A DNA stretch of 64,000 nt from Corylus avellana (taxonomy: Eukaryota; Streptophyta; Magnoliopsida; Fagales; Betulaceae). Below, piece by piece: positions 17,956 to 47,069 of the stretch. Position 1 is the stretch's first letter. The number at the start of each line of letters is the position of its first letter. A program made the position numbers and the translations under genes. The notes beneath the pieces were generated by a model. The model searched no databases, was not told where the DNA came from, and worked only from the letters and a program-made list of their open reading frames with translations. The stretch is from the NCBI RefSeq assembly GCF_901000735.1, contig NC_081542.1, forward strand, positions 13,761,229 through 13,825,228. The letters run 5' to 3'.

Positions 17956-20212
17956 TTACAAGAGAGACTTGATATGATCAGCTATATTTTGTGCATCAGT
18001 GCTAGCTCCATAAATCCCTTTTCTTGCAAATCCGACGCAGTATAACCCTTTCTTTCCCTTCCAATGATTAGGGTAACTTGGCTTTGGAAGCCCGTCCTCG
18101 TTCAAAAGATAATCATCTCCCTGCTCAACATAATACGACATTTAACATAAGACACAAACATGTCTCAATACAACTCAAATTTAACGCGCAAAAATGAAGT
18201 TTAACAATCTTTCTAGAAAGGAGTACAGCTATTGTAGAACATCTTTTTATGTTCTTTTTTTTTTGTTTGAGAGACAAGATTGGACAACTTAATAAGTAAT
18301 CAAAAGAAGTAGCTTTACCTTGAGCCACAAGCTCGTAGACCTCTTGAAACCGGTACAGAAAACAATTGTGTCAAATGAACGTGACTTGCCGTCCTCGAAA
18401 AGTAGCTCCTTCCCACTCATGCTTGCTATTTCTGCTGGTATCACCTGCGAATACATCATACCATGCAGGGCCAATCAACAACTCCGTTATTAAAAGAAAT
18501 AAGAACTGCTAAATTTTTGACACAGTTTATGAATCTGATACAAATTTAACACTAAATTTAAAAGTTATGATTGATGAGTCTGACTCATTTAATTAAATGA
18601 GTTTAGTTATGATTGACTCATATAATTTTATATCTATGCTTCGACACAACTCAAACTCAACATGTAACGTAATGACATACAAAATTAAAGGATTAGAGTT
18701 AAAATGTTTGATCCGTTTAATTAAATAAGTCGAGTTATGGTTAATCTATATAGTATTTTATATATGTCTCGACACGATCTGAACTCAACATACGAACAAG
18801 AATTGCCAACCCTATGGATATGCCTCATTTGCTTACGTGCTAAAGCTGCCACCATTGATTTCGTAACTTTATTTTTATTTTTATTTTTCTTAGCCATGAA
18901 GACTTGAGGGTCAACTCATCGGCTTTTATCAGTTTAGGACTTTGAAGGTCAAAAGTAGTTAAACCACTTATATATTAGCATGGAGTGTAGACTGAGATTT
19001 TCTATTAGAGAATTACTTACTTTAGACATTTATTCTGAATAGTTTAAAATGCATAATTTATTTCCTCTTTTAAAATACTCAAATTTTCTATAAAATTCAT
19101 GATAACAATTTTTTAAAAAAAAAGAAGCAAAAGAGAGATTGAAGTAAAATGCTTTTTACTCAACCACCAACATGGTCACCAAACTTAACTGTGAAGTTAT
19201 GATTAAGCTGACGATCGACCTAAATAAGTTGAAGTTAAAACTCTTTACCTGAATTTCTCCGGCCTTGATCTTTTCATAGGCTCCGACGTCGGCCACCGGA
19301 TACTTGCCGTACTTATCCTTCATATAGAAAGGACCCTCACTAGGCCTTCTTATTCCATACTTGCTCAGATCCCCATAAACCACCTTGCTCATCATCACCA
19401 TCAACGAGTCCACCGTGCCTACCTCAAATCGCTTCAATAAAACTAACCCCATGTATATCATCTCCCTTGACAGAAAATGAACCTGCATATATATATATAC
19501 ATATATAAATTTTTAGGTGCAAGTTCACTCGACCCAGATAATTCCGGTTTATAAAAAAAGAAAAGAAAAAACAGAGCAAGGATTGATATGGTATTCATAC
19601 AGGGCTTCGAACAATAATGTAAGTGTTGGCACCATGATTGACAAGGTCCAAGGCGATTTCCATTCCAGAATTCCCAGACCCAACAACCAAAACCTTCTTG
19701 CCGTTGAACTCCTTCCCAGATTTGAACTGAGTAGAATGAAGAATCTCACCGGAGAAAGTGTCCAATCCCTCAATCTCCGGCGTATAAGGATCTGTGGCTT
19801 CCCCGGTCGCCACCACCAAAAACTTCCCGCGATAATCCTCAACCTCACCGGAGCCTGCATTTCTTGCCTTCACTTGCCATGTCTTGGAGACCTCATCGTA
19901 CTCTGTGGACTCAACGGTCCTCCTGTGCAGGGGATTAATGTTGAAATGGGAGACATAGTCGTCTAAGTATTGGATGAACATGCTTTTTGGTACGTACGTC
20001 GGAAAAGACGCCGGGAATGGCATGTGGGGGAGTTCACAGAATTGCTTTCTAAGGTGGAGCTGGAGACGGTCGTAGGCATATTTCTTCCAGAGAGAAGCGA
20101 AACAATCTTCTCTCTCGAGTATTATGTATGGGATTGATAGGCGGCTGAAGCACGCCGCCGTGGCAAGCCCAGATGGGCCAGCTCCGATGATTATTGCTAC
20201 TTGTTCCTGCAT
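17956..20212 (-). CDS. YUC11: YUCCA11-like flavin monooxygenase (indole-3-pyruvate monooxygenase)
   Basis: Converts indole-3-pyruvate to indole-3-acetic acid using FAD, NADPH and O2, the rate-limiting step of auxin synthesis. Minus-strand exons are 20212-19601, 19482-19249, 18444-18319 and 18120-17956, all with GT-AG introns, joining in frame to 378 residues; YUCCA proteins are about 380-430. It has the FAD motif GAGPSG (10-15), the GSGNSG NADPH-binding motif (178-183), a VVATGE segment (133-138), a CTGF motif in exon 3 and the family C-terminus with GLYCVGF and [10 protein letters not shown]. The wording is closest to the YUC10/YUC11 clade, and closer to YUC11 in my judgement. No defects are seen. 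Intron 2 carries a MITE-like repeat that is also present in the truncated copy downstream. Confidence 0.92.
18515..18815. repeat. MITE-like repeat in YUCCA intron 2
   Basis: Related sequence occurs at about 20570-20872 and, as part of the tandem duplication, at 22405-22712. Shared features are TTTGACACA, GTTTAATTAAAT(A/G)AGT, GCTTCGACACGA and a CCAACCCTATG-type end. The CACGA-rich style is like the larger hAT-like insert at 45097-47069, so these may be related non-autonomous hAT elements. No coding capacity. Confidence 0.45.
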
Positions 20213-21029
20213 TCTACCAGAGCTCCCTTTTGTTATTGCAGAGGAGGAAACATGGATGATAAGAAGGGCTGTGGAATTGTGGTTTTCTATGCATCTGGTT
20301 TTGTTTTGTTTTTGTTTTTATTTTTTTATTTTATTTTTTTTAAATATATATTTTTGTTTCCTTGGATTGAAAGGAAAATTAAACGAATGTAGTTGTCATC
20401 ACTCGAGAGGGTACAGCAAGGATGACCCAGATTTGATTTGTAATAGCTAGGTATGTGGGGGCCAGCCAAATCTTGATTTTTATTAAATTATCTTACAAAA
20501 AAATATCTTCAAATTAATTTTAGAGTCATATTTCTCGAGTTTCATGCATATTAAAGTTTACAATAATTTTTGACACAACCATGAATCTTAACATAAACAG
20601 AAACAAGAAATTAGTGGGTTATGGTCGAAAGGTCTAATCCATTTAATTGGTTAAAATTTGACATATGTCATAATTTTATACATATGCTTCGAAACGAGAT
20701 ATTAGAGTGATAATTTTTTACGCAACTCGTCAACTTAACATGAAATTAGATGATTACGATTGAAGTGTTTAACTGTTTAATTAAATGAGTCAGGTTAAAA
20801 TTGACTTATATACTCTTATACTCATGTTTTAACACGACTTGAGCATAATATAAGAACACAAATTGTCACCCTTATTGCATACTGATTAGCCTGAGTAAAC
20901 CAACTATGATAAGTCCTTCCTTGTATTCACTTAAGTTCTTATAAAGTAATTTTTTTTTTTTTAGTACCTTCTATGTTTAAAATTTGTAATACAACTTAGT
21001 TACAATATAATGCATAGTAGAATGTGGAG
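20213..21029. other. YUCCA upstream region
   Basis: The promoter of the minus-strand YUCCA gene should lie here. About 20290-20350 is T-rich low-complexity DNA. About 20570-20872 is a copy of the repeat found in YUCCA intron 2. No other gene is seen. Confidence 0.45.
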
Positions 21030-21114
21030 CAAAGTGGGTTATATGGGTCTAAAGTTAGATATGAATAACGCATATGATAGGATGAAGTGAAATTTTTTGG
21101 AGGCTGTTATGTGG
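21030..21114 (+). mobile_element. LINE reverse-transcriptase fragment
   Basis: One frame reads GLKLDMNNAYDRMK, then a stop and NFLEAVMW, matching the catalytic block of plant L1 reverse transcriptases (KLDMSKAYDR, then W.FLE). It is broken on the right by the start of an inverted LTR fragment at 21115. Confidence 0.7.
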
Positions 21115-21673
21115 TGTTGTGCCAAATACCCACCTAAATTAATAGGCGAATAACTGGTGCGTTTTACTCGCAAGTGCACGATATCAAAACGATAGTATAT
21201 GGTGCAAGTATGAGATCATTCCCACGAAGATTGTTGATTTTGTTTAAAACTGATTTTCCAAATTAATTTGCCAAATTGTCACCAATGTTGAAAGAGATAA
21301 AGATAATGAAAAGGTTAGAGATTTGATATCCACCACTAATCAGACTAATTAAAATACAAATACGCCAATGTTTCAATCATGTTGATGTATTTAATGCTTG
21401 TCAACATAAGAGCATGGTATCTACTCCTTAAGCTATCGATTTCCCTAAGCAATGAATTATGTATGATTTCTACTCTAATTCTTTTCTTTCCTAAAGGATT
21501 TAGCATTGTATCTACTAGGTTGTTCTTTAAGGAAACATAAATTTATAGAAATCAACAAACATATGAAGCTTAGGGTATGGGATCTACTTCTAGTTTCCCA
21601 TATTGATTACCCCAAGAACTCATGATAAGATTATTTTGTTACTTTATTAAATCTAAGAATCGGTCATCCAAAT
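21115..21673 (-). mobile_element. Truncated LTR (copy C of the TGATAAGTGCC family)
   Basis: On the minus strand this matches the 3' part of the LTRs at 38480-40317 and 42608-44101, ending GTATTTGGCACAACA. Shared landmarks include the CTATTAATTTAGGT segment and the GGATGACCGA / GGTCATCCAAAT block. The 5' two-thirds of the LTR is missing. The break coincides with the start of the duplicated YUCCA segment, and TCCAAAT is common to both sides of that junction. Confidence 0.75.
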
Positions 21674-23646
21674 CCCAAGTTTCTATCAAGGTAAGTTGGC
21701 AATATCACACCAGTAATTAACAATACTAAAATACAATTCTTTAGAGCATAATGAGTATTATTAGCCTCATCGTCCACAAAGACAATTCACTGAAAATAAA
21801 AAAGATTATTTCAGAATTTTATGCGGAACATAACATTTTTTTACATGAGGGACTTGATATGATCAACTATATTTTGTGCATCAGTACTAGCTCCATAAAG
21901 CCCTTTTCTTGAAAATCCGACACAGTATAGGCCATTCTTTCCCTTCCAGTGATTAGGGTAACTTGGCTTCGGAAGCCCGTTCTCGTTCAAAAGATAGTCA
22001 TCCCCCTGTTCAAAATAATACGACATTTAACATAAGGAACAAATATGTCTCGATACAACTCATATTTAACACGCAAAGATGAGCGGAATCCGCGTTTAAC
22101 AATCTTTCTAACCAGGAGTACAGCTATTTTAGAACATCTTTTTTCTCCTTTTTTTGTTTGAGAGACAAGATTGGACAACTTAACAAGTAATCAAAAGAAG
22201 TAGCTTTACCTTGAGCCACAAGTTTGTGGACCTCTTGAAATCGGTACAGAAAACAATTGTATCAAATGAACGTGACTTGCCGTCCTCGAAAAGCAGCTCC
22301 TTCCCACTCATGCTTGCTATTTCTGCTGGTATCACCTGCGAATATACATCATGCCATGCAGGGTCAGTCAACAACTCCGTTATTAAAAGAAATAAGAACT
22401 GATAAATTTTTGACACAGTTTACGAATTTGATACAAATTTAATACAAAATTTAAAAATTATGGTTGGTGAGTCTGATCCGTTTAATTAAATAAGTTTAGT
22501 TATAATTGACCCATATAATTTTATATCTATGCTTCGACACGACCCAAACCCCAACACATGACATAATAACATGCACAATTAAAGAGTTAGGATTAAAGGG
22601 TTTCATCCGTTTAATTAAATATATCGAGTTATGGTTAACCTATATAGTATTTTATACGTGTCTTTACACAATCTAAACTGGATATACGAACACAAATTGC
22701 CAACCCTATGAATATGCATCATTTGCTTAGGTGCCAATGCTGCCACCATTGATTTCCTAACTTGTTTTTTTTTTTCTGAGCATGAAGGCTTGAAGGTCAA
22801 CCCCTTGGCATTTATCAGTTTATGGACTATGAAGGTCAAAAGTAGTTAAACTACTTATATATTTGTATGGATCGTAGACTGAGATTTTCTGTTATTAGAT
22901 TGTTCAGAATTTAGCGGTCAAAAAAATGGGCTACGAGGATTACTTACTCTAGACATTTATTTCGAATAGTTTAAAATGCATAATTTACGACTCGGGATTG
23001 GCGAGTCACCTCTTCCTCTCTTAAAATACTCAAATTTTCTATAAAATTCAGGATCCCAATATATATATTTTTTTTAAAAAAAAAAAAATGCAAAAGAGAG
23101 ATTGAAGTAAAATGCTTTTTACTCAACCACAAACATGGTCACCAAACTTAACGGTGAAGTTATGGCTAAGCTGACGATCGACCTAAATAAGTAGAAGTTA
23201 AAACTGTTACCTGAATTTCTCCGGCCTTGATCTTTTCATAGGCTCCGACGTCGGCCACCGGATACTTGCCGTACTTATCCTTCATATAGAAAGGACCCTC
23301 ACTAGGCCTTCTTATTCCGTACTTGCTCAGATCTCCATAAACCACCTTGCTCATCATCACCAGCAACGAGTCCACCGTGCCTACCTCAAATCGCTTCAAT
23401 AAAACTAACGCCATGTACATCATCTCCCTTGACATTTAGGGTCAAGTTCACCCGACCCGGATAATCCGGTTTATAAAAAAAGAGAAGAAAAAACAGAGCA
23501 AGGATTGATATGATATTCATACAGGGCTTCGAACAATAATGTAAGTGTTGGCACCATGATTGACAAGGTCCAAGGCGATTTCCATTCCAGAATTCCCAGA
23601 CCCAACAACCAAAACCTTCTTGTTGTTGAACTCTTTCCCAGATTTG
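21667..23646. repeat. Tandem duplication of 17794-19724
   Basis: A direct duplicate of about 1.9-2.0 kb covers the YUCCA 3' flank, exons 4-2 and the 3' end of exon 1. It begins at TCCAAAT, shared by the YUCCA 3' flank (17794-17800) and the adjoining LTR fragment (21667-21673). It ends at CCCAGATTTG, after which the copies differ completely. The 7-base microhomology points to replication- or repair-mediated duplication. Confidence 0.85.
21841..23646 (-). pseudogene. 5'-truncated tandem copy of the YUCCA11-like gene
   Basis: Contains recognisable exon 4 (22005-21841), exon 3 (22335-22210), most of exon 2 (to 23211) and only the last 124 bases of exon 1 (23646-23523). The FAD-binding half is absent, so no functional monooxygenase can be made. 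A deletion of about 40 bases relative to the intact gene also removes the acceptor and first codons of exon 2 near 23435-23445. The conserved CTGF motif has become CTDF in exon 3. What remains is still highly similar to the intact gene, introns included, so the copy is fairly young. Exons 3 and 4 have no frame breaks. Confidence 0.92.
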
Positions 23647-24547
23647 TTTAATTACCGTATAATGCATCTAATTAACATTAAAATTCAAAATCTCAAAAGA
23701 ATATTAAAAAAACAATAATTATGCTAAATTGTAGTCTATGCTAGCTTCTTCGGCAAATAAAAGTCATTCATTATCAATTTCCATTGAGGATTTGTTTGGG
23801 TTTGCAATCTCAAAAAGTGGGATTTAAAAATAATGATTTGAAAATATGATTTTTAAAGACCCAGTTAAACGGTTGACAAAATTATAATTTGACTTTTAAA
23901 ATCGTAGTTTAGCTTTTAAAATTGTACATTTTAAATCGCAATATTTTAAAATTGTGCATTTTAAAACGTAGAAAAATTCTCTATGTCTTCAAATCGCAAT
24001 GTTTTAAAAACACAATCCCAAACCATCTATTTTTTTACGATTTGGTTTAAAATCTCACCTTTTGTCTTTAAAATCACAATGCCAAACATACCTTGAATAT
24101 TTCATTAATTTCCCCTCAGTATAGTTATCTACAACAAAATCGTACTTCATTTTATTTAAATTTTGTATTGATAATGCTTGTAGCTGAAAAAAAACTCACT
24201 TGATAGATTCATCTATTATTAAAATAAACAAACAGTTATTTGTAAGAGAAAAAAAAATATCTCTTTAAATGTGAGAAACCATAATTAGTTTTGATATACA
24301 AATATAAATAAACTATGAGTAGTGTTATTGACCATATTTTTATCTTTCTAAAATTAATGTGATTTTTTAAAATACTATTGAATTTTGACAATTTTAAAAG
24401 TTACATTAACTTAAAAAAATAAAAATAAAAAGGATTGTTGTAACATCACTAGTAACCTACGGCCTCAATTAATGAAAGGGCCCACCACATACTGAGAAGG
24501 CCAACTACATCTACATGGCCAACACCCAAAAAAAAAAAAAAAAAATA
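23647..24547. other. AT-rich intergenic DNA with a palindromic MITE
   Basis: About 23787-24095 is a MITE-like palindrome: GTTTGGGTTTGCAATCTC on the left, against GTTTGGCATTGTGATTTTAAA as the reverse complement of the right, with a core of alternating TTTTAAAATCGTA motifs. The rest is AT-rich with no gene. Confidence 0.5.
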
Positions 24548-37589: not shown

Positions 37590-38479
37590 AAATAAATGGA
37601 AAAATATCGTCCTCTGCTAGGGTTTCTCTCTAAGCTTTCTTCAGAGAGGACATAGTGGTGAGGAAAAGTCTCTTCCTTGGCAAGGGGATAATTGTGGTAG
37701 TACCTGTGGAAAGAGATGCACCCGACAGAAAACATGATGGGTAGGGCAGACAAGAGATCCTTGACTGAGGGAGAAAGGTGAGGGATTACGATCTTTGATG
37801 AAGAAGTGGAGGAGATCTGTCTGAAAAGTGCAAACTGCCTGGTGGGCAAATATTGGACGGAACGAAAATATAACAAAGAAGCCTTTAAGTCTGTCCTCTC
37901 GAAGCTATGGCGATTGGTAGGTAGAGTAAGTTTCAAGGAGTTATAAGACAATTTATGGCTTTTTGAATTTGCAAAGTATGATAAGCGCAAAGTGTTGGAT
38001 GGGCGGCCATGGTCATTTGACCTGCAGATCTTAGTGATACAAGACTTTGATGGTCTAATCCCACCTTCCCAAATGCAGCTCAACCACTCTTCATTTTGGA
38101 TCCAAAATCACGATATGCCGCTCTTGTGCATGACAAAGAGTGTGGGTACCAAACTTGGGGGCTCCTTGGGCTTACTAAAATATTTACATAAACGGGTGAG
38201 TATAGATGTGACCAAACCCCCGGAGCAAGGTAGAGCACTACATGTGGGAGGAAAATCCTTATGAGTGCATTTCAAAAACAAAAATCTCCCATTTTTTTGA
38301 TTCCACTGTGGATGCATTGTTCATGGTCCCAAAGGTTGTAGTGGAAAGTAGAGGATACGTTTCGCTTCAGAGGAAGGGGAGAAACAGTGGGGGGTATGGC
38401 TAAGAGCATATGACGGTAGGAGGAAGACAGGGTTAAGGACTAACCAGCCAAACCGAGATGGCTGGTCCCCGTCTCCGGC

Positions 38480-40317
38480 TGATAAGTGCCAAAATATTCA
38501 AATTTTACCCCTTAACTTATATTTGTTAGGAAAAAATCCACTTTGCTCCCTTGAAGTTTTAGGGGTTTTTCGACTTGAACCCCAAAATTTAAAAATTAGC
38601 AATATACTCCCTTAATGTTTCAAAAAATTTCAATTTAAACGTTCCGTTACTAATTTTCATCAAATTGGATGAAAATCTATGAAATTACATAATTACCCTT
38701 AGGCTTTTTTTTTAAAAAAAAAAAAAAAAAAAAAAATCCGTCCAATTTAACAAAAATTAGTAACGGAATGTTTAAATTGAAAATTTTAGAAACATTAGAG
38801 GAGTACATTACTAATTTTTAAACTTTGGGGTTCAAGTTGAAAACCCCTGAAACTTTAGGGGGTAAAATGGATTTTTCCCTATTTTTAATTCCTTAGTTTT
38901 GTTAGTTTATGCTATTTTATTTCCTTTTTGTATTTTCTTTGTTTTATAGGTTTTTGGAAGAAAAGAAAGCGTTTCCGGAAAAGTTCCAAGCTTAAAGGGA
39001 AAATTGGGAAGACCTAGAAGATATGATTAAGCTTAACCAATCATAATATGATGTGGTTAAGTTTAATCAAATAAAGGAAAGGATTAAATCGAAATTTCTC
39101 AAATTGGAGTCAAAATCGGATTTGATTCAAATTTGGATTCTGCATATGTTCCGGTATTTTGACCGTAACTTTCAGCTCAAATATCTGATTGAGGTGATTA
39201 AAGAGGCATTGGAAAGCTAACTTAAAATGATACAAATAATTGTGAAATAGTGTTTTCCTAATTCGGACTTCCACTATGCCAAAATCACCCCGCAAGATAG
39301 GAAAGCAATTTTGGACGAATCCTATTCCAATTTGGACTTAGTTTTTCTTTATCCTAATTGGACTAAGACTTAAATCTCCGAATTTCCTAGGATTACTAGG
39401 GCTTCTAGGACTCTCCTAATCCCTATAAATATACCTCTAAGCCTCACAATTCAATACACAATTTCAAGGAAACAACTTTGGGGAGAAGAATTGGAGGCTA
39501 CTTCAAGGAGTCGTTTTTGGTTCTTTCTTTCCCTTTTCTTTTTAGTTTTATTTTAATTATGTGTAACTAACTCTTAAGGAGTGCTAGATTGAAGCCCTAA
39601 TTATGTTCATTTAATATTTCAATATTGGCGCCTTTGTGATAGTCATATTGTGTTGCTTAACTTGATTAATTCCTGTTTTATTGAATTTCTCATATGTGTT
39701 TGTCTGATCAACATATGCATATGGTATAGACTAGTTAATTAAATCAATTTGGATGACCGAGTCTTGAGTTTAATAAGAGTAACAAAAGAAATCCACACTG
39801 GGTTCTTGGGTTAATCAACATAGGAAATCGAGAGTAGACATCCATTCCCTAGGCCTCAAGTGTTTGTCAATTTCTGCAGATTTATGCTTTCTTAAAGAAC
39901 AACTTAGTAGACATCCATGCTAAATCCTTTAAGAAAGAAAAGAATTAGAGCAGACATGCATGCATAATTCGTTGCTTAGGGAAATCAATAGCTTAAGGAG
40001 TAGACACCCATACTCTTAGGTTGGCAAACATTAAGTATTTATAATATGATTGGATCATTGGCATATTGTTATATTATCTAAGTATGATTAGTGGTCGATA
40101 TCAAAGCCCTACCTTTACCTTATCTTTATTTTTATTTCTTTTTCATAATATCAATATTGTGACAATTTTGAGATTTTAATTAATTCTAAAATAGAATCAA
40201 CAATTCTAGTGGGATCGATCTTGTACTTGCTGCATTATACTATCATTTAATCTTATGCACTTGTGAGTAAAACGTACTAAATATTATCTATTAATTTAGG
40301 TAGTATTTGGCACAACA
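38480..40317 (+). mobile_element. LTR copy A (5' of the NAC gene)
   Basis: Starts TGATAAGTGCC and ends GTATTTGGCACAACA, a TG...CA boundary. It is a direct repeat of 42608-44101, with roughly one difference per ten bases in the stretches compared by eye. A promoter-like CCCTATAAATA at about 39422 implies plus-strand transcription. It is longer than copy B because of a 351-bp MITE (38529-38879). The left flank CCGGC (38475-38479) resembles TCGGT after copy B. The right flank ACGCT (40318-40322) resembles ATGCT before copy B. Confidence 0.85.
38529..38879. mobile_element. Palindromic MITE inside LTR A, TA target duplication
   Basis: Termini are GGAAAAAATCC and GGATTTTTCCC, flanked by TA on each side (38527-38528 and 38880-38881). 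The two halves are long inverted copies: TTTTAGGGGTTTTTCGACTT with its complement, and TAACGGAA with its complement. LTR copy B lacks it, which independently defines it as an insertion. A TA duplication fits a Tc1/mariner-like origin. Confidence 0.8.
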
Positions 40318-40397
40318 ACGCTGATGTGGTGCGGGCTGATTGGGCAAGAAGCTTAAATTAAGTCCAAGTAAAGAAAGGAGTAGAACCACCGGCTTAC

Positions 40398-40413
40398 ATT
40401 TTATATATATATA
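40398..40413 (+). promoter_or_regulatory. TATA box of the NAC gene
   Basis: TTTTATATATATATAG lies about 50-60 bases before the NAC start codon and only about 80 bases after the end of LTR A. The distal promoter of the gene is therefore LTR sequence. Confidence 0.5.
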
Positions 40414-40460
40414 GTTGACGACCAAGGCCTCAATTAATCTTCTGAATCTAAATTTTGAGG

Positions 40461-41820
40461 ATGGGGATAAAGCTGAAACCCAAAGAAATACAACTTCTCC
40501 TCGAAAAGCTTTACAAGAAAGCAAATGGAGAATCAGAAAGCGATATCCCTGAATTCAACTTATACGGCGAGAAAGAGCCGTGGCAAATATGGGAGGAGGC
40601 AATATTAGCATCGGCATGCATGCAAGGTGGTGGTGCGGCTGCCGCCGCCACGTTAATGAACCAAAAAGAAGTTTGCATCTTCACAAAGGTGAAAAAGAAG
40701 ACCCTCAATAGCTCACGTATTGACCGGACAGTGGGAACCGGCGCGTGGAAAGGGGAGGACGCTGGCGTCACGATTTATGGTAACACGACTACTAATGAAG
40801 GAACTACTACGGAGCTTGTCGGAATCAGAAAAAGGTTTCCGTATGAGAGTAAGACGATCCATCACGGCCGTTGGATCATGTACGAGTATGCCCTTCAACC
40901 CTCCACGCTCACCCATGCAAAAGTAAATATTCATTAACCAATTTTACTTCTTTTTTCTTTTGTTATCTAGTAAATTTTTGTTTCAAAAGTTGGTTTCTAT
41001 TGGACAGAGTTTTCTTTCAAATTGGGTTCGAGGAACTTCCTTTAACCCAGTCTATAAAAATGACATGTGTCCTATTTTAATAACATATGACATACACATG
41101 AGTTTTTAATATTATTTATTCCAATTTTGTCCCTACTATTAAAAAACATGGGCATTTCACATGTTCAAATGACAACTCTGACCGTTTCTAAATTATGTCT
41201 TATCAGTTTATGACATATTTCTTAAAATAATAAATGACGCATCATTTAGAAACCAATTTTTGAAAATAAAATTTGAAATATGTAGCAATTCTCTATTGCT
41301 TTTGGAACACTCATGAACAAAGTATAATTTCAGTTAATTTCAATGTTCTTATTTATGGTCTGTGACTTGCATGCAGTTTCAAAATTATGTGCTTTGTTGG
41401 ATGAAGAAGATGGAGGGATCAGAAAAGAAGAGGAAACCAGAAGAAGAAGAAGAAGAAGAAGAAAGGCTAGATCAGATCCTAACACTGAACCATATTGGAC
41501 ATGATGATGATGAGAAGGAGGAGAATACGAGGTTGACCAATATTGGACATGATGATGGTGGTCATATATTTATTGACTTGTCTGACTCTGATGAACAAAC
41601 TGTCAACAATATTATTGAAACTAGTACATCGGTGTCGGTGGATGAGAAACAATCCAACGATTCACCGGAATCAAACTTTGACGACCATACAGACTGGGCA
41701 AAAGCATTCGCTGCAGAGTTAACTGAAGGCCAATCACACCTTCTGCAGGAGCCAGAGATTGAGATGTTGCCCAATACTGCATATTTTCTTGATAATTCTA
41801 TTAATTTCCAATTTTTATAA
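40461..41820 (+). CDS. Divergent NAC-domain transcription factor
   Basis: Plant NAC proteins are DNA-binding transcription regulators. Two exons, 40461-40922 and 41377-41820, are joined by a GT-AG intron in phase 0 and give 301 residues without a break. The N-terminal NAC domain (about 1-165) is diverged but recognisable: GIKLKPKE...L in place of the usual PPGFRFHPTDEEL, FNLYGEKEPWQIWEE (subdomain B), RIDRTVGTGAWKGEDAG (C), VGIRKRFPYE and GRWIMYEYAL (D), and FQNYVLCWMKK (E). The C-terminal part is acidic, with a Glu run from a GAA repeat and FIDLSDSDEQ, consistent with an activation region. The gene lies between two direct LTRs inside a LINE, which is unusual. The intact frame suggests recent arrival or selection; function is unproven. 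Confidence 0.8.
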
Positions 41821-42205
41821 AAATGATAGGTTTTCTTTTTTTTTCTTCTTTTGGTCTGTAAATCAATGAAAGACAGTATCTTTTTTTATTAATTTTCTTT
41901 ATTTATTTATTTATTTTTTTAGGACAGTGGAATGTTTTTATCAGGACACTTGTCAGTCGGACAAAATTGTCATGGAGGTACTAAATTGGTTTTATTGATA
42001 ACATAAATATCATCATGTAATACGGATTGAATAATCGAACAATATACAGTGGGTTGTATGCATTATTTTATGGTTTAGTTTAGTTTGTTGTCGCCTTGGT
42101 ACCAAGGGTTTATAGTGTGAAATACACAATAATGCTGCCTATTTTCTTGATAATTCTATAAATTCCCAATTATTATATAAATGATAGGCTTTTTTTTTTT
42201 TTCTT
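41770..42205 (+). repeat. Duplicated 3' end of the NAC gene
   Basis: The last 16 codons plus the start of the 3' flank (41770-41845: TATTTTCTTGATAATTCTAT, then AAATGATAGG and a T-run) recur at 42127-42205 with a few differences. A direct duplication of roughly 75 bases lies about 355 bases downstream, both copies running into pyrimidine-rich tracts. Confidence 0.8.
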
Positions 42206-42234
42206 TCTTTCTTTCTTTCTTTCTTTCTTTTTGG
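42188..42234. repeat. T-run and (TTTC)n microsatellite
   Basis: A T homopolymer merges into at least six TTTC units. Confidence 0.85.
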
Positions 42235-42607
42235 TATGTAAATTAATGAGAGACCCTAAACCCTAGTATCAAAGTCCAAGGCAATAATATATATCTCCTT
42301 TTTTTTTTTTAATTACAAGATGATGATTTAATGACATGCACTTCCACAACACATGACTGTTGAAGTGAGGGTAAAAGTGGAAGAAAAAAATTTAAAATGG
42401 CATATGACTTGCACATAACCATTGACCATCAATTTTAACCCATTTGACTGATGAAAATAGGTTTTTTGTCATAAGATGGTAGATTGATGGGGTCAGGTAT
42501 TATAGTTGGTAGTTCATAGGAGGAAAGTATCAAGTTGTTGTAGTTCATGGGAGCAAAAGGTAATCACTCCTATTTTTAATTTGTTTTTATTAATTACTTG
42601 GTATGCT

Positions 42608-44101
42608 TGATAAGTGCCAAAATATTTGTATTTTAACACTTAACTTATATTTTTGAATTCTTTAGTTTTGTTAGTTTGTGCTATTTTATTTTCTTTTTGT
42701 GTTTTTTTTGTGTTTTTGTAGGTAATGGAAGAAAAGAAAGCGCTTCCTGAAAAGTTTCAAGCTTAAAGGGCAAATTGGGAAGACCGAAAAGATATGGTTA
42801 AGCTTAACCCATCATAATAGAGGATCTATATAATGTGGTTAAGTTTAATCAAATAAATGAAATGATTAAATCGAAATTTCTCAAATTTGAGTCAAAATCG
42901 GATTAGATTCAAATTTGGATTCTGCATACATCTCGATATTTTGACCATAACTTTCAGCTCAAATATCCGATTAAGGTGATTCAAGTGGCATTGGAAAGTT
43001 AACTTCAAATGCTACAAATCATTTTGGATAGCATTTTCCTAATTCGGAATGACACTATGCCAAAACCACCCCGCAAGATAGGAACGCAATTTTGGACGAA
43101 TCCTATTCCGATTTGGACTTAGGTTTCTTTATCCTAATTGGACTAGGACTTAAATCTCCAAATTTCCTAGAATTACTAGGGCTTCTAGGACTCTTCTAAG
43201 CCCTATAAATAGACCTCTAAGCCTCACAATTCAATACACAATTTCAAGGAGACAACTTTGGGGAGAGGAATTGGAGGCTACTTCAAGGAGTCGTTTTTTT
43301 TTTTTTTTTTCCTTTTCTTTAGTTTTATTTTAATTATGTATTACTAACTCTTTAGGAGGACTAGATTGAAACCCTAATTATGTTTATTTAATATTTCAAT
43401 ATTGGCGCCTTTGTGATAATCATATTGTGTTGCTTAACTTGATTAATTCATGTTTTTTTGAATTTCTCATATGTGTTTGTCTGATCAACATATGCATGTG
43501 GTATGGACTAGTTAATTAAATCAATTTGGATGACTGAGCCCTGGGTTTAATAAGAGTAACAAAATAAATCTACACTGGGTTCTTGGGTTAATCAACATGT
43601 GGAACCGGGAGTAGACACCCATGCCCTAGGCCTCATGTGTTTGTCGATTTCCACAGTTTTATATTTTCTTAAAGAACAACTTAGTAGACACCCATGCTAA
43701 ATCCTTTAAGAAAGAAAAGAATTAGAGTAGACACTCATACCTAATTCATTGCTTAGGGAGATCAATAGCTTAAGGAGTAGACACACATACCCTTAGGTTG
43801 GCAAACATTAGGTATTCATAATATGATTAGATCATTGACATATTATTATATTCTTTGAGCATGATTGGTAGTAGATATCAAAGCCCTACATTTACCTTTA
43901 TCTTTATCTTTATTTATTTTTCATATGTCAATATCAATTTCGTGACAACTTTGATATTTTAATCAATTCTAAATAAAATCAACAATCTCTGTGGAATCGA
44001 TCTCGTACTTGCTGCACTACACTATTGTTTTGATCTTGTGCACTTGCGAGTTAAAGTATACTAAATATTATCTATTAATTTAGGTAGTATTTGGCACAAT
44101 A
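42608..44101 (+). mobile_element. LTR copy B (3' of the NAC gene)
   Basis: 1494 bp, starting TGATAAGTGCC and ending GTATTTGGCACAATA; the final CA has become TA. It is collinear with copy A along its whole length, including the CCCTATAAATA promoter-like motif at 43202, and lacks the MITE present in A. No polypurine tract precedes it; the preceding 40 bases are T-rich. It is followed by TCGGT (44102-44106) and then by LINE sequence in frame with the LINE sequence left of copy A. Confidence 0.85.
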
Positions 44102-45096
44102 TCGGTAGGCGGATGGAATTCTAGCAGTGGAGCACAGCCAACTTCCTCCCCAAGCATGGGAAGTTGCGGCAATCACGGAAACCCTAATGAAAGTATTCCC
44201 AGGAAGGAAGCAAGCAATACGGAATCCAGCTCTTTCCATAACGGTCATGGGACAGCATTTGTTGCCAGCTTTTCAAATGAGTCAACTGAGGGGGAAAGTG
44301 GAAAACAAACAACTGGAAGGGAGATGAGGAGCAGAAACATGTGAACCCTATTGGGGCAAAGAGGGGAATTTGTATTGGGACAGGCCAAATCAAGCCCAAG
44401 AATTATTCTGGAAGGGGAAGTCCAAAGCATAGGAAACTACAGCCCAAGTTAGGGCGAACTTGCTTAAACCATACTGGAGCTGGACCTGTGACCAAGTCGA
44501 AGCTGAAGCAGGGAGACAAAAACCACGAGAAGAATCTTACTATGATGACTCAAACACACGAAGGAAGTAGTTTGAGGACTTGGAAATGGAAGGGTCGTGA
44601 AATTAATGGTCAAGGCTTGGGACTTGAGATGGGAGGTGAGGAGTAGAACAAAGGAAGATTGAACACCTAGGGACAAAAGCGACATTGGAGGCTTCGATGA
44701 AGAAAGGACGACATGTAGATGTCTAGTGTCATGGCAGAGGCAGTGGAGCAGCCCCACCGCAAACAATGATTCTCCTTAGTTGGAATTGCCGGGGGCTTGA
44801 AAACTCCACGGCAATCCAAGACCTTTGCCAATGGGTAAGGAATAAGAAGCCCAACTTTTTGTTTCTTATGAAAACAAAAAGCTTTCAGAATAAGATGGAG
44901 AGAATTCGTGTACGTTTAGGATTTTTAGGGTTGTTTGTCGTCGACCTGGTGGGATGAAGTGGTGGGATAGCATTATTATAGCATGAGGAATGTGGAGCTA
45001 CCATCCCGAACTTCTCTAGAAGGCATATCAATGCTATTGTCTACCCTCCAAATGAGAGGAATTGGAAGCTCATGGGCTTTAATGGGCACCCAGAAG

Positions 45097-47069
45097 TAGG
45101 GCTCACAAAACGTGTTCATGTCCAACCCAATTACAACATGACACGTTGAAGCCCAACCCGAACACGACACGTTCAGCTAAACGTGTCGAATACCAAAACC
45201 CAAACACAACACATTTTATAAACGGTTAACACGACACGACACGTGTAACCTGTTTATATAAACGTGTTGTGTTGGGTCGACACAACACGACCCGTGAACA
45301 CGACCCAGGACGAATGTAAAGTCATTTTAGTTTTTAACCTTTTATAGATTTACCAAAATATAAAAATCTTAGCAAACAATGCAACAAATACAATGTGGCA
45401 GTCTTTCCTCTACTTTTTTTTTTCCTAATCAGTCTTTCCTCTACTTACTTTCACTAACAAAATCCTCTAAAACAATAATCAAACCATCAAGGGAAAAGCT
45501 TACAAAGTTACAAGGCCACATGGAGTAATGTTAAAACTAAATGAATTACATGCTCCTGTTAAGGAATATTAATAGAAATATATCCATGTGTACTGATTTC
45601 CATTGTCAGAGTAACTTCTTCTGGCTCATCCAACATAATCCATGTGCGTACTATATCAAAACATAAATCAGTAATTAGTGTTATTATAGTGTAGTAAAAA
45701 AAAATACAAGTTGATGAATGAATTAAATATGCAAATAACTAATATTACCTTGTTGTTTTTATAATCATTAAAAAAACCAACAAAGAATACAAACTCACTT
45801 CTAGTTCTAGCCATACAACTAAAACATCAACAAAAACATCAGTAAACCACCAACAATAACCCATCAGACTAACAAATTAACAATCAACAACCTGAAGGTA
45901 GAAAACAACCACAAACACAAACAGATTGTCAATGTAGAATGTCGAAATCCTAAGGAACATATTTACATCAGACTTACTGAATTTCCTTTTCCACCTGCGT
46001 CTATGTCATACATTCCAAATCACAGCCAGCAAGATTTTCTCCTAAGCTCTCGGTGGATTACCATGTCTTATAGTATTATTCCTCTGCCACCAGAATTGGT
46101 AAACAAAGAAGCACACCAAGTATAATTTGCACAAACTAGCCCTTAAAACCTTATTCCTCCAATTTTGAATTCCAAGATTCACAATATCTGGCCACTCAAC
46201 AGGGAAAACGCCAAAAAATACATCAAACTGCCATTCCTAAGCGCCTAAAACAGAGCAAAAAAAAAAAATCAAAAAATGCAGAAAAAGGCGGTGATTTGCA
46301 GGTTCTCATAAATGAATTTTGTAATCATAAATTACAAAATGCAGAGAAATAGCAAGAACTTTTGTAATCATAGGGTCATTGTTTCTTCATTTTTATTTTA
46401 TTTTTAGATGAGGGATAATGGAAATTACAATAGCAAACTAAAACAAAAGAAGAAAAATTACAAAAACCTAAATCAAAGACCAAAAAATAACACAAAAAAT
46501 AACCTATTTGTTTGAGCGAAGTATTGCCTGAAATGAATGCCTTCAAGGCTTCAAGCCTTTCAAAATTTTCTTTTCAACCACGAAATCAAGTAATTAACCA
46601 AAGGAAATAAAATACCTCGAGGTAGTGCTGCTACGCCGCAAACCAAGAGAGACAGAGAGACCAACAGAGAGAAGGCCGGAGAAGGAGATACCGATGGAGG
46701 TAATGTTGTTGTGCCGTGAACCAAGAGAGAAGGAGACACCGACAGAGAGAGTCGAGAGACTGAGAGCAAGAGCAAGCGATCGAAGCGAGAGTGAGAGAGG
46801 TAGTGGACAGAAGGTCTCCTGAGTGGCACAAGAGAGGCAGGAAGCGAGATTCTTTTTAGGGTTGAGTAAGTTAAGGCTTTTAGGTATAGAAACAAAAAAC
46901 AAAAAGAAAAAAACATACGGGTCAAACTTGTCAACCCGCGAACTCGGCGGGTTGACACGACCCGACACGTTTAATAAATGGGTCACCCGTTTAAGCCCAA
47001 CTTTAACCCGAATTTCAAGTGTTGTGTTCGTGTCGGGTTCGCGTGTCATGGGTTAAATTGCCAGCCCTA
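45097..47069. mobile_element. 1.97-kb non-autonomous hAT-like insertion in the LINE
   Basis: Ends are TAGGGCTCACAA and, as reverse complement, TAGGGCTGGCAA. The subterminal regions are full of ACACGACACG / CGTGTCGTGT motifs in both orientations. It is flanked by CCCAGAAG (45089-45096) and CCAAGAAG (47070-47077), an 8-bp target duplication with one mismatch. Removing the element plus one copy rejoins the LINE endonuclease frame at GFNGHPE|ATRRKEV. No transposase is present. Open frames on either strand near 46560-47050 are GA/CT-rich artefacts. Confidence 0.85.

What the first reader, a model, noticed from the sequence alone, without database searches (positions are those of the whole stretch)
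38475..44106. An intact NAC transcription factor gene bounded by two direct LTRs, the whole block inserted in a LINE
A two-exon NAC gene with an unbroken 301-codon frame occupies most of a 2.29-kb interior between two full-length direct LTRs (38480-40317 and 42608-44101). Both outer flanks are the same LINE ORF1. Joining LINE sequence left of LTR A to LINE sequence right of LTR B, with one pentamer removed, gives an uninterrupted frame (GWSPSPA|GGWNSSSGAQ). So the block behaves as one insertion. The interior has no gag-pol, no primer-binding site next to LTR A and no polypurine tract before LTR B, so it is not an ordinary retrotransposon. The retained intron, in the same orientation as the LTR promoter, argues against passage through spliced RNA.
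Basis: partly seen in the sequence, partly recalled or inferred. Interest (0 to 1): 0.9.

Follow-up and report, generated by a model that had tools for sequence, protein, structure and literature searches.

The report
Gene docked between two LTRs, inside-out
A working-looking hazelnut gene sits between two retrotransposon ends inside an older element, and its shuffled order suggests that it was moved there as a small DNA circle by recombination rather than by normal retrotransposition.

Summary
The window lies in hazelnut (Corylus avellana). An intact two-exon NAC gene lies between two direct LTRs, and both outer flanks are one LINE.

The 35 bp just before LTR B (42573-42607) are NAC upstream DNA. 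In the four other places where I found that DNA it runs uninterrupted into the sequence that here follows LTR A, and the two pieces overlap by exactly 5 bp (ACGCT/ATGCT), a target-site duplication. So one LTR once sat upstream of this NAC gene and a second LTR of the family in the LINE (CCGGC/TCGGT).

The NAC 3' flank is joined to a MITE loop at a 6-bp microhomology, CAACAC. Simplest account: microhomology closed a ~3.8-kb circle carrying LTR and NAC gene, which entered the LINE by LTR x LTR crossover. Tandem duplication plus LTR-anchored gene conversion predicts the same structure and is not excluded. Retrotransposition fits badly: PBS and PPT, present in a normal family element, are missing, and the intron is kept.

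Five of six NAC copies found have full frames. Parallels are known in yeasts and cattle; my literature searches showed no such plant case.

The parts
37800..38479 (+). LINE ORF1, left part (broken by stops)
   Evidence: DUF4283 E=2.2e-10; collinear with LINE copies on C5 and C6
38475..38479 (.). outer 5-mer CCGGC, left half of a proposed decayed TSD in the LINE
   Evidence: 3 of 5 letters match TCGGT on the right, both differences C/T
38480..40317 (+). LTR A
38525..38881 (.). foldback insertion within LTR A (inverted arms 38558-38669 and 38741-38852)
40318..40322 (.). inner 5-mer ACGCT, one half of the TSD of an LTR insertion upstream of NAC
   Evidence: uninterrupted in the four other places found
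40323..40460 (+). NAC upstream region with AT-rich TATA-like stretch 40400-40413; the site TTGAC 40415-40419, occupied by an LTR in the five other copies, is uninterrupted here
40461..40922 (+). NAC exon 1
40923..41376 (+). NAC intron (GT..AG), holding a repeat of about 175 bp
41377..41820 (+). NAC exon 2 with stop
41821..42352 (+). NAC 3' flank
   Evidence: aligned with array units and the C10 copy
42347..42352 (.). CAACAC, microhomology joint between NAC 3' flank and MITE loop
42353..42572 (.). rest of MITE loop plus one arm of a common foldback MITE, inner to outer end
42573..42607 (+). 35 bp of NAC upstream DNA, out of order, ending in ATGCT (42603-42607), the other half of the inner TSD
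   Evidence: 33/35 in unit 1 and C10, 30/35 in units 2 and 3
42608..44101 (+). LTR B
44102..44106 (.). outer 5-mer TCGGT, right half of the proposed LINE TSD
44107..45100 (+). LINE, right part: end of ORF1 and start of ORF2
   Evidence: aligned with the C5 and C6 LINE copies; the C6 copy's ORF2 start has Exo_endo_phos E=1.8e-14

Best explanation
Two LTRs of one gypsy-like family were already in place: one upstream of a NAC gene (TSD ACGCT), one in a LINE (TSD CCGGC/TCGGT). A segment running from the loop of a foldback MITE upstream, through the LTR and the NAC gene, into the NAC 3' flank was joined end to end at a 6-bp microhomology (CAACAC), giving a circle of about 3.8 kb. Homologous crossover between the circle's LTR and the LTR in the LINE opened the circle there and left LINE-LTR-NAC-LTR-LINE in circularly permuted order, intron kept. 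Shown by sequence: permutation, inner 5-bp overlap, microhomology joint, LINE continuity, absence of PBS and PPT. Inferred: that the intermediate was a free circle and not a tandem duplication copied by LTR-anchored gene conversion; that the LINE's LTR was solo by then; order and date of events. The NAC gene keeps its TATA-like stretch and frame and is probably functional. Confidence given is for the circle; for LTR-anchored recombination of either kind I would say 0.8.
For: Inner flanks ATGCT|LTR B and LTR A|ACGCT are one uninterrupted site in four other places. The 35 bp before LTR B are NAC upstream DNA beyond the MITE terminus; none of 16 MITE arms from 8 loci has GGTA(C/T)GCT there. NAC 3' flank and MITE loop share CAACAC exactly at the joint; the loop form is seen in 5 of 8 MITE loci. 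TSD length 5 in relatives: GGAAA pair (a ~70% identical LTR), CTTCA pair. LINE collinear. A normal family element has a PBS and PPT stretch, the window neither. No other NAC copy found has an LTR at ACGCT.
Against: The outer 5-mers match at only 3 of 5 positions, and the C5 LINE relative has a 9-nt length difference near the joint, so the outer TSD is not proven. LTR A and B give no recombination proof: A+B as sisters is not rejected (p-AU 0.43, 258 of 1,000 bootstrap trees), and a FastTree run placed A and B together at 0.84, which one common origin would also predict. No donor locus or excision scar was found; the genome searches for it did not complete. No circle was observed.
Confidence: 0.55

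Rival explanations
1. Tandem duplication plus gene conversion: the same microhomology joint made a chromosomal tandem duplication (MITE-LTR-NAC | MITE-LTR-NAC). The LTR in the LINE was then repaired from this array by ectopic gene conversion anchored in both LTRs, copying one LTR-NAC-LTR unit. No free circle existed.
For: Predicts the same final structure. NAC units do form a tandem array 225 kb away. The wtf study names conversion and circles as equal options (PMC9562144 passages).
Against: The existing array has a different unit joint and its LTRs sit at TTGAC, not ACGCT; no array with LTRs at ACGCT was seen, though the genome searches for one did not complete.
Confidence: 0.25
2. LTR-ended mobilisation: an RNA or linear DNA running LTR-NAC-LTR was integrated as a unit into the LINE by a retrotransposon integrase, as in gene capture.
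For: 5-mers CCGGC/TCGGT at the outer ends; LTR ends intact; A and B as sisters not rejected.
Against: No PBS or PPT; intron kept; the permuted interior still needs a prior circle or tandem duplication; A and B share 1 exclusive site of 1,430, within the range of other pairs.
Confidence: 0.1
3. Assembly error: unrelated LTR copies were joined wrongly, producing an apparent NAC insertion in the LINE.
For: LTRs and MITE are repeated; reads were not inspected.
Against: The LTRs differ by about 11%, the LINE halves are collinear, inner and outer 5-mers pair separately, and the joint carries microhomology.
Confidence: 0.04

Closest known systems
wtf genes duplicating into pre-existing 5S rDNA (Schizosaccharomyces; PMC9562144, passages)
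   Same: Gene flanked by direct repeats at a site that held one repeat before; models offered are ectopic gene conversion or circle integration; S. pombe copies are flanked by solo LTRs.
   Different: Yeast meiotic drivers; here the TSD pairs, the permutation and the microhomology joint can be read in one plant locus.
LTR circles in S. cerevisiae (PMC4751563, passages)
   Same: The paper speculates that a circle could recombine with a genomic solo LTR and so move.
   Different: There the circle is a Ty element; here a host gene.
XylA circle in S. cerevisiae closed at an 8-nt microhomology and later integrated (PMC4352087, passages)
   Same: Microhomology closure followed by integration.
   Different: Integrated at its own locus in tandem arrays, under selection, without LTRs.
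Intact Fie2 gene inside a maize LTR retrotransposon (PMC1560396, passages)
   Same: Intact plant gene inside an LTR element, no donor site found, route unknown.
   Different: No permutation or TSD bookkeeping in the passages seen.
Chimeric EVD-gene circle in Arabidopsis mutants (PMC10462705, section 8 read)
   Same: A circle joining an LTR element with the gene in which it had inserted: the proposed intermediate, in a plant.
   Different: That circle held fragments; its reintegration was not shown.
Serial translocation of KIT by circular intermediates in cattle (original not read; title seen, content recalled)
   Same: Circular permutation as the sign of a circular intermediate (recalled).
   Different: Not LTR-anchored (recalled); animal.

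Membership tests
LTR retrotransposon with captured gene | Two direct LTRs with TG..CA ends | tested here: met
   TGATAAG..CAACA in A; B ends in CAATA
LTR retrotransposon with captured gene | PBS after the 5' LTR | tested here: not met
   window ACGCTGATGTGG.. against AGTTTTTAGCGCCGTTGCC.. in L033 and AGTTTTTGG.. in L037-L039
LTR retrotransposon with captured gene | PPT before the 3' LTR | tested here: not met
   window ..ACTTGGTATGCT against ..GTTTGGGGGTG in L033, the one element whose 3' end was read
LTR retrotransposon with captured gene | Identical TSDs around the element | tested here: inconclusive
   CCGGC/TCGGT, 3 of 5
Processed retrogene | Intron loss | tested here: not met
   454-bp intron kept
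Circle-mediated gene translocation | Circular permutation of the moved segment | tested here: met
Circle-mediated gene translocation | Free circle as intermediate | not testable with these tools
   needs circle sequencing
Circle-mediated gene translocation | Lone LTR at the target site beforehand | not testable with these tools
   no relatives' genomes held; LINE continuity shown only through a paralogous copy
NAC transcription factor | NAM domain above curated cut-off | tested here: met
   PF02365, 47.4 bits against cut-off 27; solved NAC19 chains match residues 64-171

The most novel reading that the evidence does not exclude
Dispersed LTRs act as docking sites for gene-bearing DNA circles in plants: a gene that acquires an LTR can leave as a circle and re-enter at another LTR of the family, intron and promoter intact, without retrotransposition machinery. 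The hazelnut NAC family may have spread repeatedly this way, and intact genes found inside LTR elements (such as maize Fie2) could be explained by the same route.
Probability: 0.25. Interest if true: 0.8.

Novelty: new variant of a known kind. Interest (0 to 1): 0.62.

Why it matters
Intact genes inside LTR elements have been noted in plants without a mechanism (maize Fie2, PMC1560396 passages). This locus gives a base-level signature that separates recombination docking from retrotransposition: inside-out order, two independent TSD pairs, one microhomology joint, no PBS or PPT. The signature can be scanned for in any plant genome, so LTR-anchored gene movement becomes countable. It also shows a small NAC family in which all six near-full copies found (one capped search) sit beside LTRs of one family.

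Tried and rejected
Gene capture by retrotransposition: set low because PBS and PPT stretches seen in family members are absent. Two solo LTRs landing independently on either side of an inserted NAC gene: rejected, since the LINE is collinear and the inner flanks form one uninterrupted site elsewhere. Processed retrogene: rejected, intron kept. That 42353-42607 is only a MITE end was tested because one search showed it to be repetitive; the 35 bp beyond the MITE terminus are NAC upstream DNA. An earlier count said 15 arms; the right count is 16. Dating by LTR divergence: K 0.111 gives 4.3, 7.9 or 37 million years at three assumed rates, and it need not date the event. Proof of crossover inside the LTRs: inconclusive; rows left out there were C10b (partial) and L039 and arrL3 (duplicate or near-duplicate; L039 also). 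LINE empty site by DNA: the right flank matches only itself, the left flank 4 places including itself. Pfam gave nothing for the 117-aa LINE junction peptide and nothing above a cut-off for the L033 gag-like frame.

Papers: listings only; searches are listings from which I opened five papers (one search's own two were not opened). Passages seen; one section read. That no such plant case is in print rests only in the open-licence library.
Full report
WHERE IT IS. The window is C2:13761229-13825228 of a 369.9-Mb, 12-contig assembly. C2 is 50,858,233 bp long, equal to the contig length given for the best protein hit, Corylus avellana LOC132169096 (P0002). P0002 exon 1 matches array unit 1 at 100%, and that unit's frame stops at codon 258, as the 257-aa record does. 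So the genome is hazelnut.

THE OBSERVATION. LTR A and LTR B are direct repeats, 89.5% identical once the foldback insertion in LTR A is set aside (K2P 0.114; 0.111 in a wider alignment). The NAC gene is intact over two exons and has a NAM domain. The LINE frame closes when one 5-mer is dropped. The flank identity rests on DUF4283 in the left flank and, in the C6 copy that aligns with both flanks, on DUF4283, a zinc knuckle and an endonuclease domain. A LINE copy on C5 aligns across the junction in one piece (63.8% over 450 columns, E=1.4e-41), with 9 nt fewer near the joint, so it shows continuity but not the exact TSD. The C6 copy matches the left part and ORF2 but not the tail near the joint.

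OTHER NAC COPIES. One search (1,478 first-look candidates, 40 scored) gave six near-full copies: the window, three tandem units at C2:14.026-14.035 Mb, C2:5.32 Mb and C10:9.18 Mb. Identities over the compared stretch are 90.6-93.0% with no clear branching. Full frames: 5 of 6. dN/dS of the window copy against unit 1, unit 2, unit 3, C2:5.3 and C10: 0.48, 0.37, 0.18, 0.27, 0.21 (pairwise NG86), which suggests selection on the protein; pairs with unit 1, which has the early stop, run higher, up to 1.05. All five other copies carry an LTR 3' end directly before TTGAC, 46 bp upstream of the ATG; in the window this site is uninterrupted. These LTRs group together with 100/98 support, so that was probably one older insertion, apart from LTR A and LTR B. 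Of five protein hits in the large database two are named, hazelnut and beech, both Fagales (the order is recalled).

THE KEY RESULT. In the four places outside the window where I found the relevant NAC upstream stretch (unit 1, unit 2, unit 3, C10) it reads ..TTACTTGGTACGCT then (G/C)ATG.. without interruption. In the window ..TTACTTGGTATGCT stands directly before LTR B, and ACGCTGATGTGG directly after LTR A. The overlap is 5 bp, the TSD length of LTRs of this kind: a perfect CTTCA pair around L041 and GTGGG/GTAGG around L040, and a perfect GGAAA pair around a more distant (about 70%) LTR. So LTR A and LTR B occupy, from the inside, the two sides of a single LTR insertion upstream of NAC: the interior is inside-out.

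CHECK OF THE KEY RESULT. The stretch 42360-42572 proved to be one arm of a common foldback MITE (432 candidates, 40 scored), so the match might have been MITE against MITE. Sixteen arms from the eight loci that I fetched show that the MITE ends at about ..GGTAATTACCCCTA. The window's next 35 bp are NAC upstream DNA: 33/35 in unit 1 and C10, 30/35 in units 2 and 3, whose extra mismatches lie at their own tandem joint. None of the 16 arms carries GGTA(C/T)GCT; two (L047p, L049p) show a partial AT-rich resemblance, so that BLAST ran on to query base 252 and 249 of 255.

THE JOINT. NAC 3' flanks read CTTCCACAACACTTTGTG in units 2 and 3, CTCTACAACACTTTGTG in unit 1 and CACAATACTTTGTG in C10. The MITE loop in 5 of 8 loci reads ..ATCCAACACATGAAAAC. 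The window reads CTTCCACAACACATGACTG. The shared CAACAC at 42347-42352 is a microhomology joint. The existing array has a different joint, so the window unit is an independent event.

WHY NOT A RETROTRANSPOSON. L033 lies between two LTRs of the family and has LTR|AGTTTTTAGCGCCGTTGCC.., a gag-like open frame (no Pfam match above a cut-off) and ..GTTTGGGGGTG before the next LTR. L037, L038 and L039 continue AGTTTTTGG.. after the LTR. The window has neither signal. Calling these PBS, PPT, gag and gypsy-like rests on position and on recalled plant sequences, not on a tRNA or protein match.

MECHANISM. Circle closure by microhomology, then crossover between the circle's LTR and the LTR in the LINE, gives the observed order in two steps. 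Tandem duplication followed by gene conversion in the LTRs gives the same order. I favour the circle because no copy with an LTR at ACGCT was seen elsewhere, but the genome searches for such a copy and for a donor scar did not complete; in the stretches held, the NAC 3' flank occurs only next to NAC copies or their pieces. The LTRs do not decide: A and B share 1 exclusive site of 1,430 (0-7 for other pairs); A is as close to L037, L038 and L041 (K 0.104-0.107) as to B (0.111); FastTree put A and B together at 0.84 while IQ-TREE did not, with sister status not rejected (p=0.43, 258 of 1,000 bootstrap trees). Only five further LTR copies of a large family (6,524 candidates, 40 scored) could be fetched.

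COMPARISON. The separate steps are known: a microhomology-closed circle that later integrates (PMC4352087), proposed recombination of circles with solo LTRs in yeast (PMC4751563), gene spread into pre-existing repeats by conversion or circles (PMC9562144), a chimeric LTR-element/gene circle in Arabidopsis (PMC10462705), and an intact gene in a maize LTR element with no known route (PMC1560396). What is new here is the combination in a plant, readable to the base. It works like circle-mediated translocation; membership is open, since no circle was observed.

Noticed in passing
window 18500-24500, minus strand: An FMO/YUCCA-like gene (FMO-like Pfam for 19595-20212; YUCCA recalled) with a second, 5'-lacking copy at about 21860-23640; a 5'-truncated relative of the LTR family (21115-21673, about 77%) lies between them.
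   Followed up: no
window 41000-41174: The NAC intron holds a repeat of about 175 bp with dozens of genome matches, often in both orientations at one place, so probably another foldback MITE.
   Followed up: no
L009, L010, L011, L012: The five other NAC copies have an LTR between the native TATA-like stretch and the ATG, so their promoters may have been taken over by the LTR.
   Followed up: partly
C1:37188968, 37193240, 37197521 (L033): Three LTRs at a spacing of about 4.3 kb; the interior read (L033) has a gag-like frame and no other long frame, perhaps a tandem non-autonomous element.
   Followed up: partly
C2:13910048: A related lone LTR with a perfect GGAAA duplication, apparently inside a LINE.
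   Followed up: no
L038 and L039 (C10:11709320, C3:20939275): Two LTR copies on different chromosomes are identical over the aligned LTR (K 0) with the same start of left flank, so either a recent duplication or an assembly matter.
   Followed up: no
L012 (C10), between NAC 3' flank and the second upstream piece: NAC 3' flank DNA is repeated there in inverted orientation, making a long palindrome.
   Followed up: no
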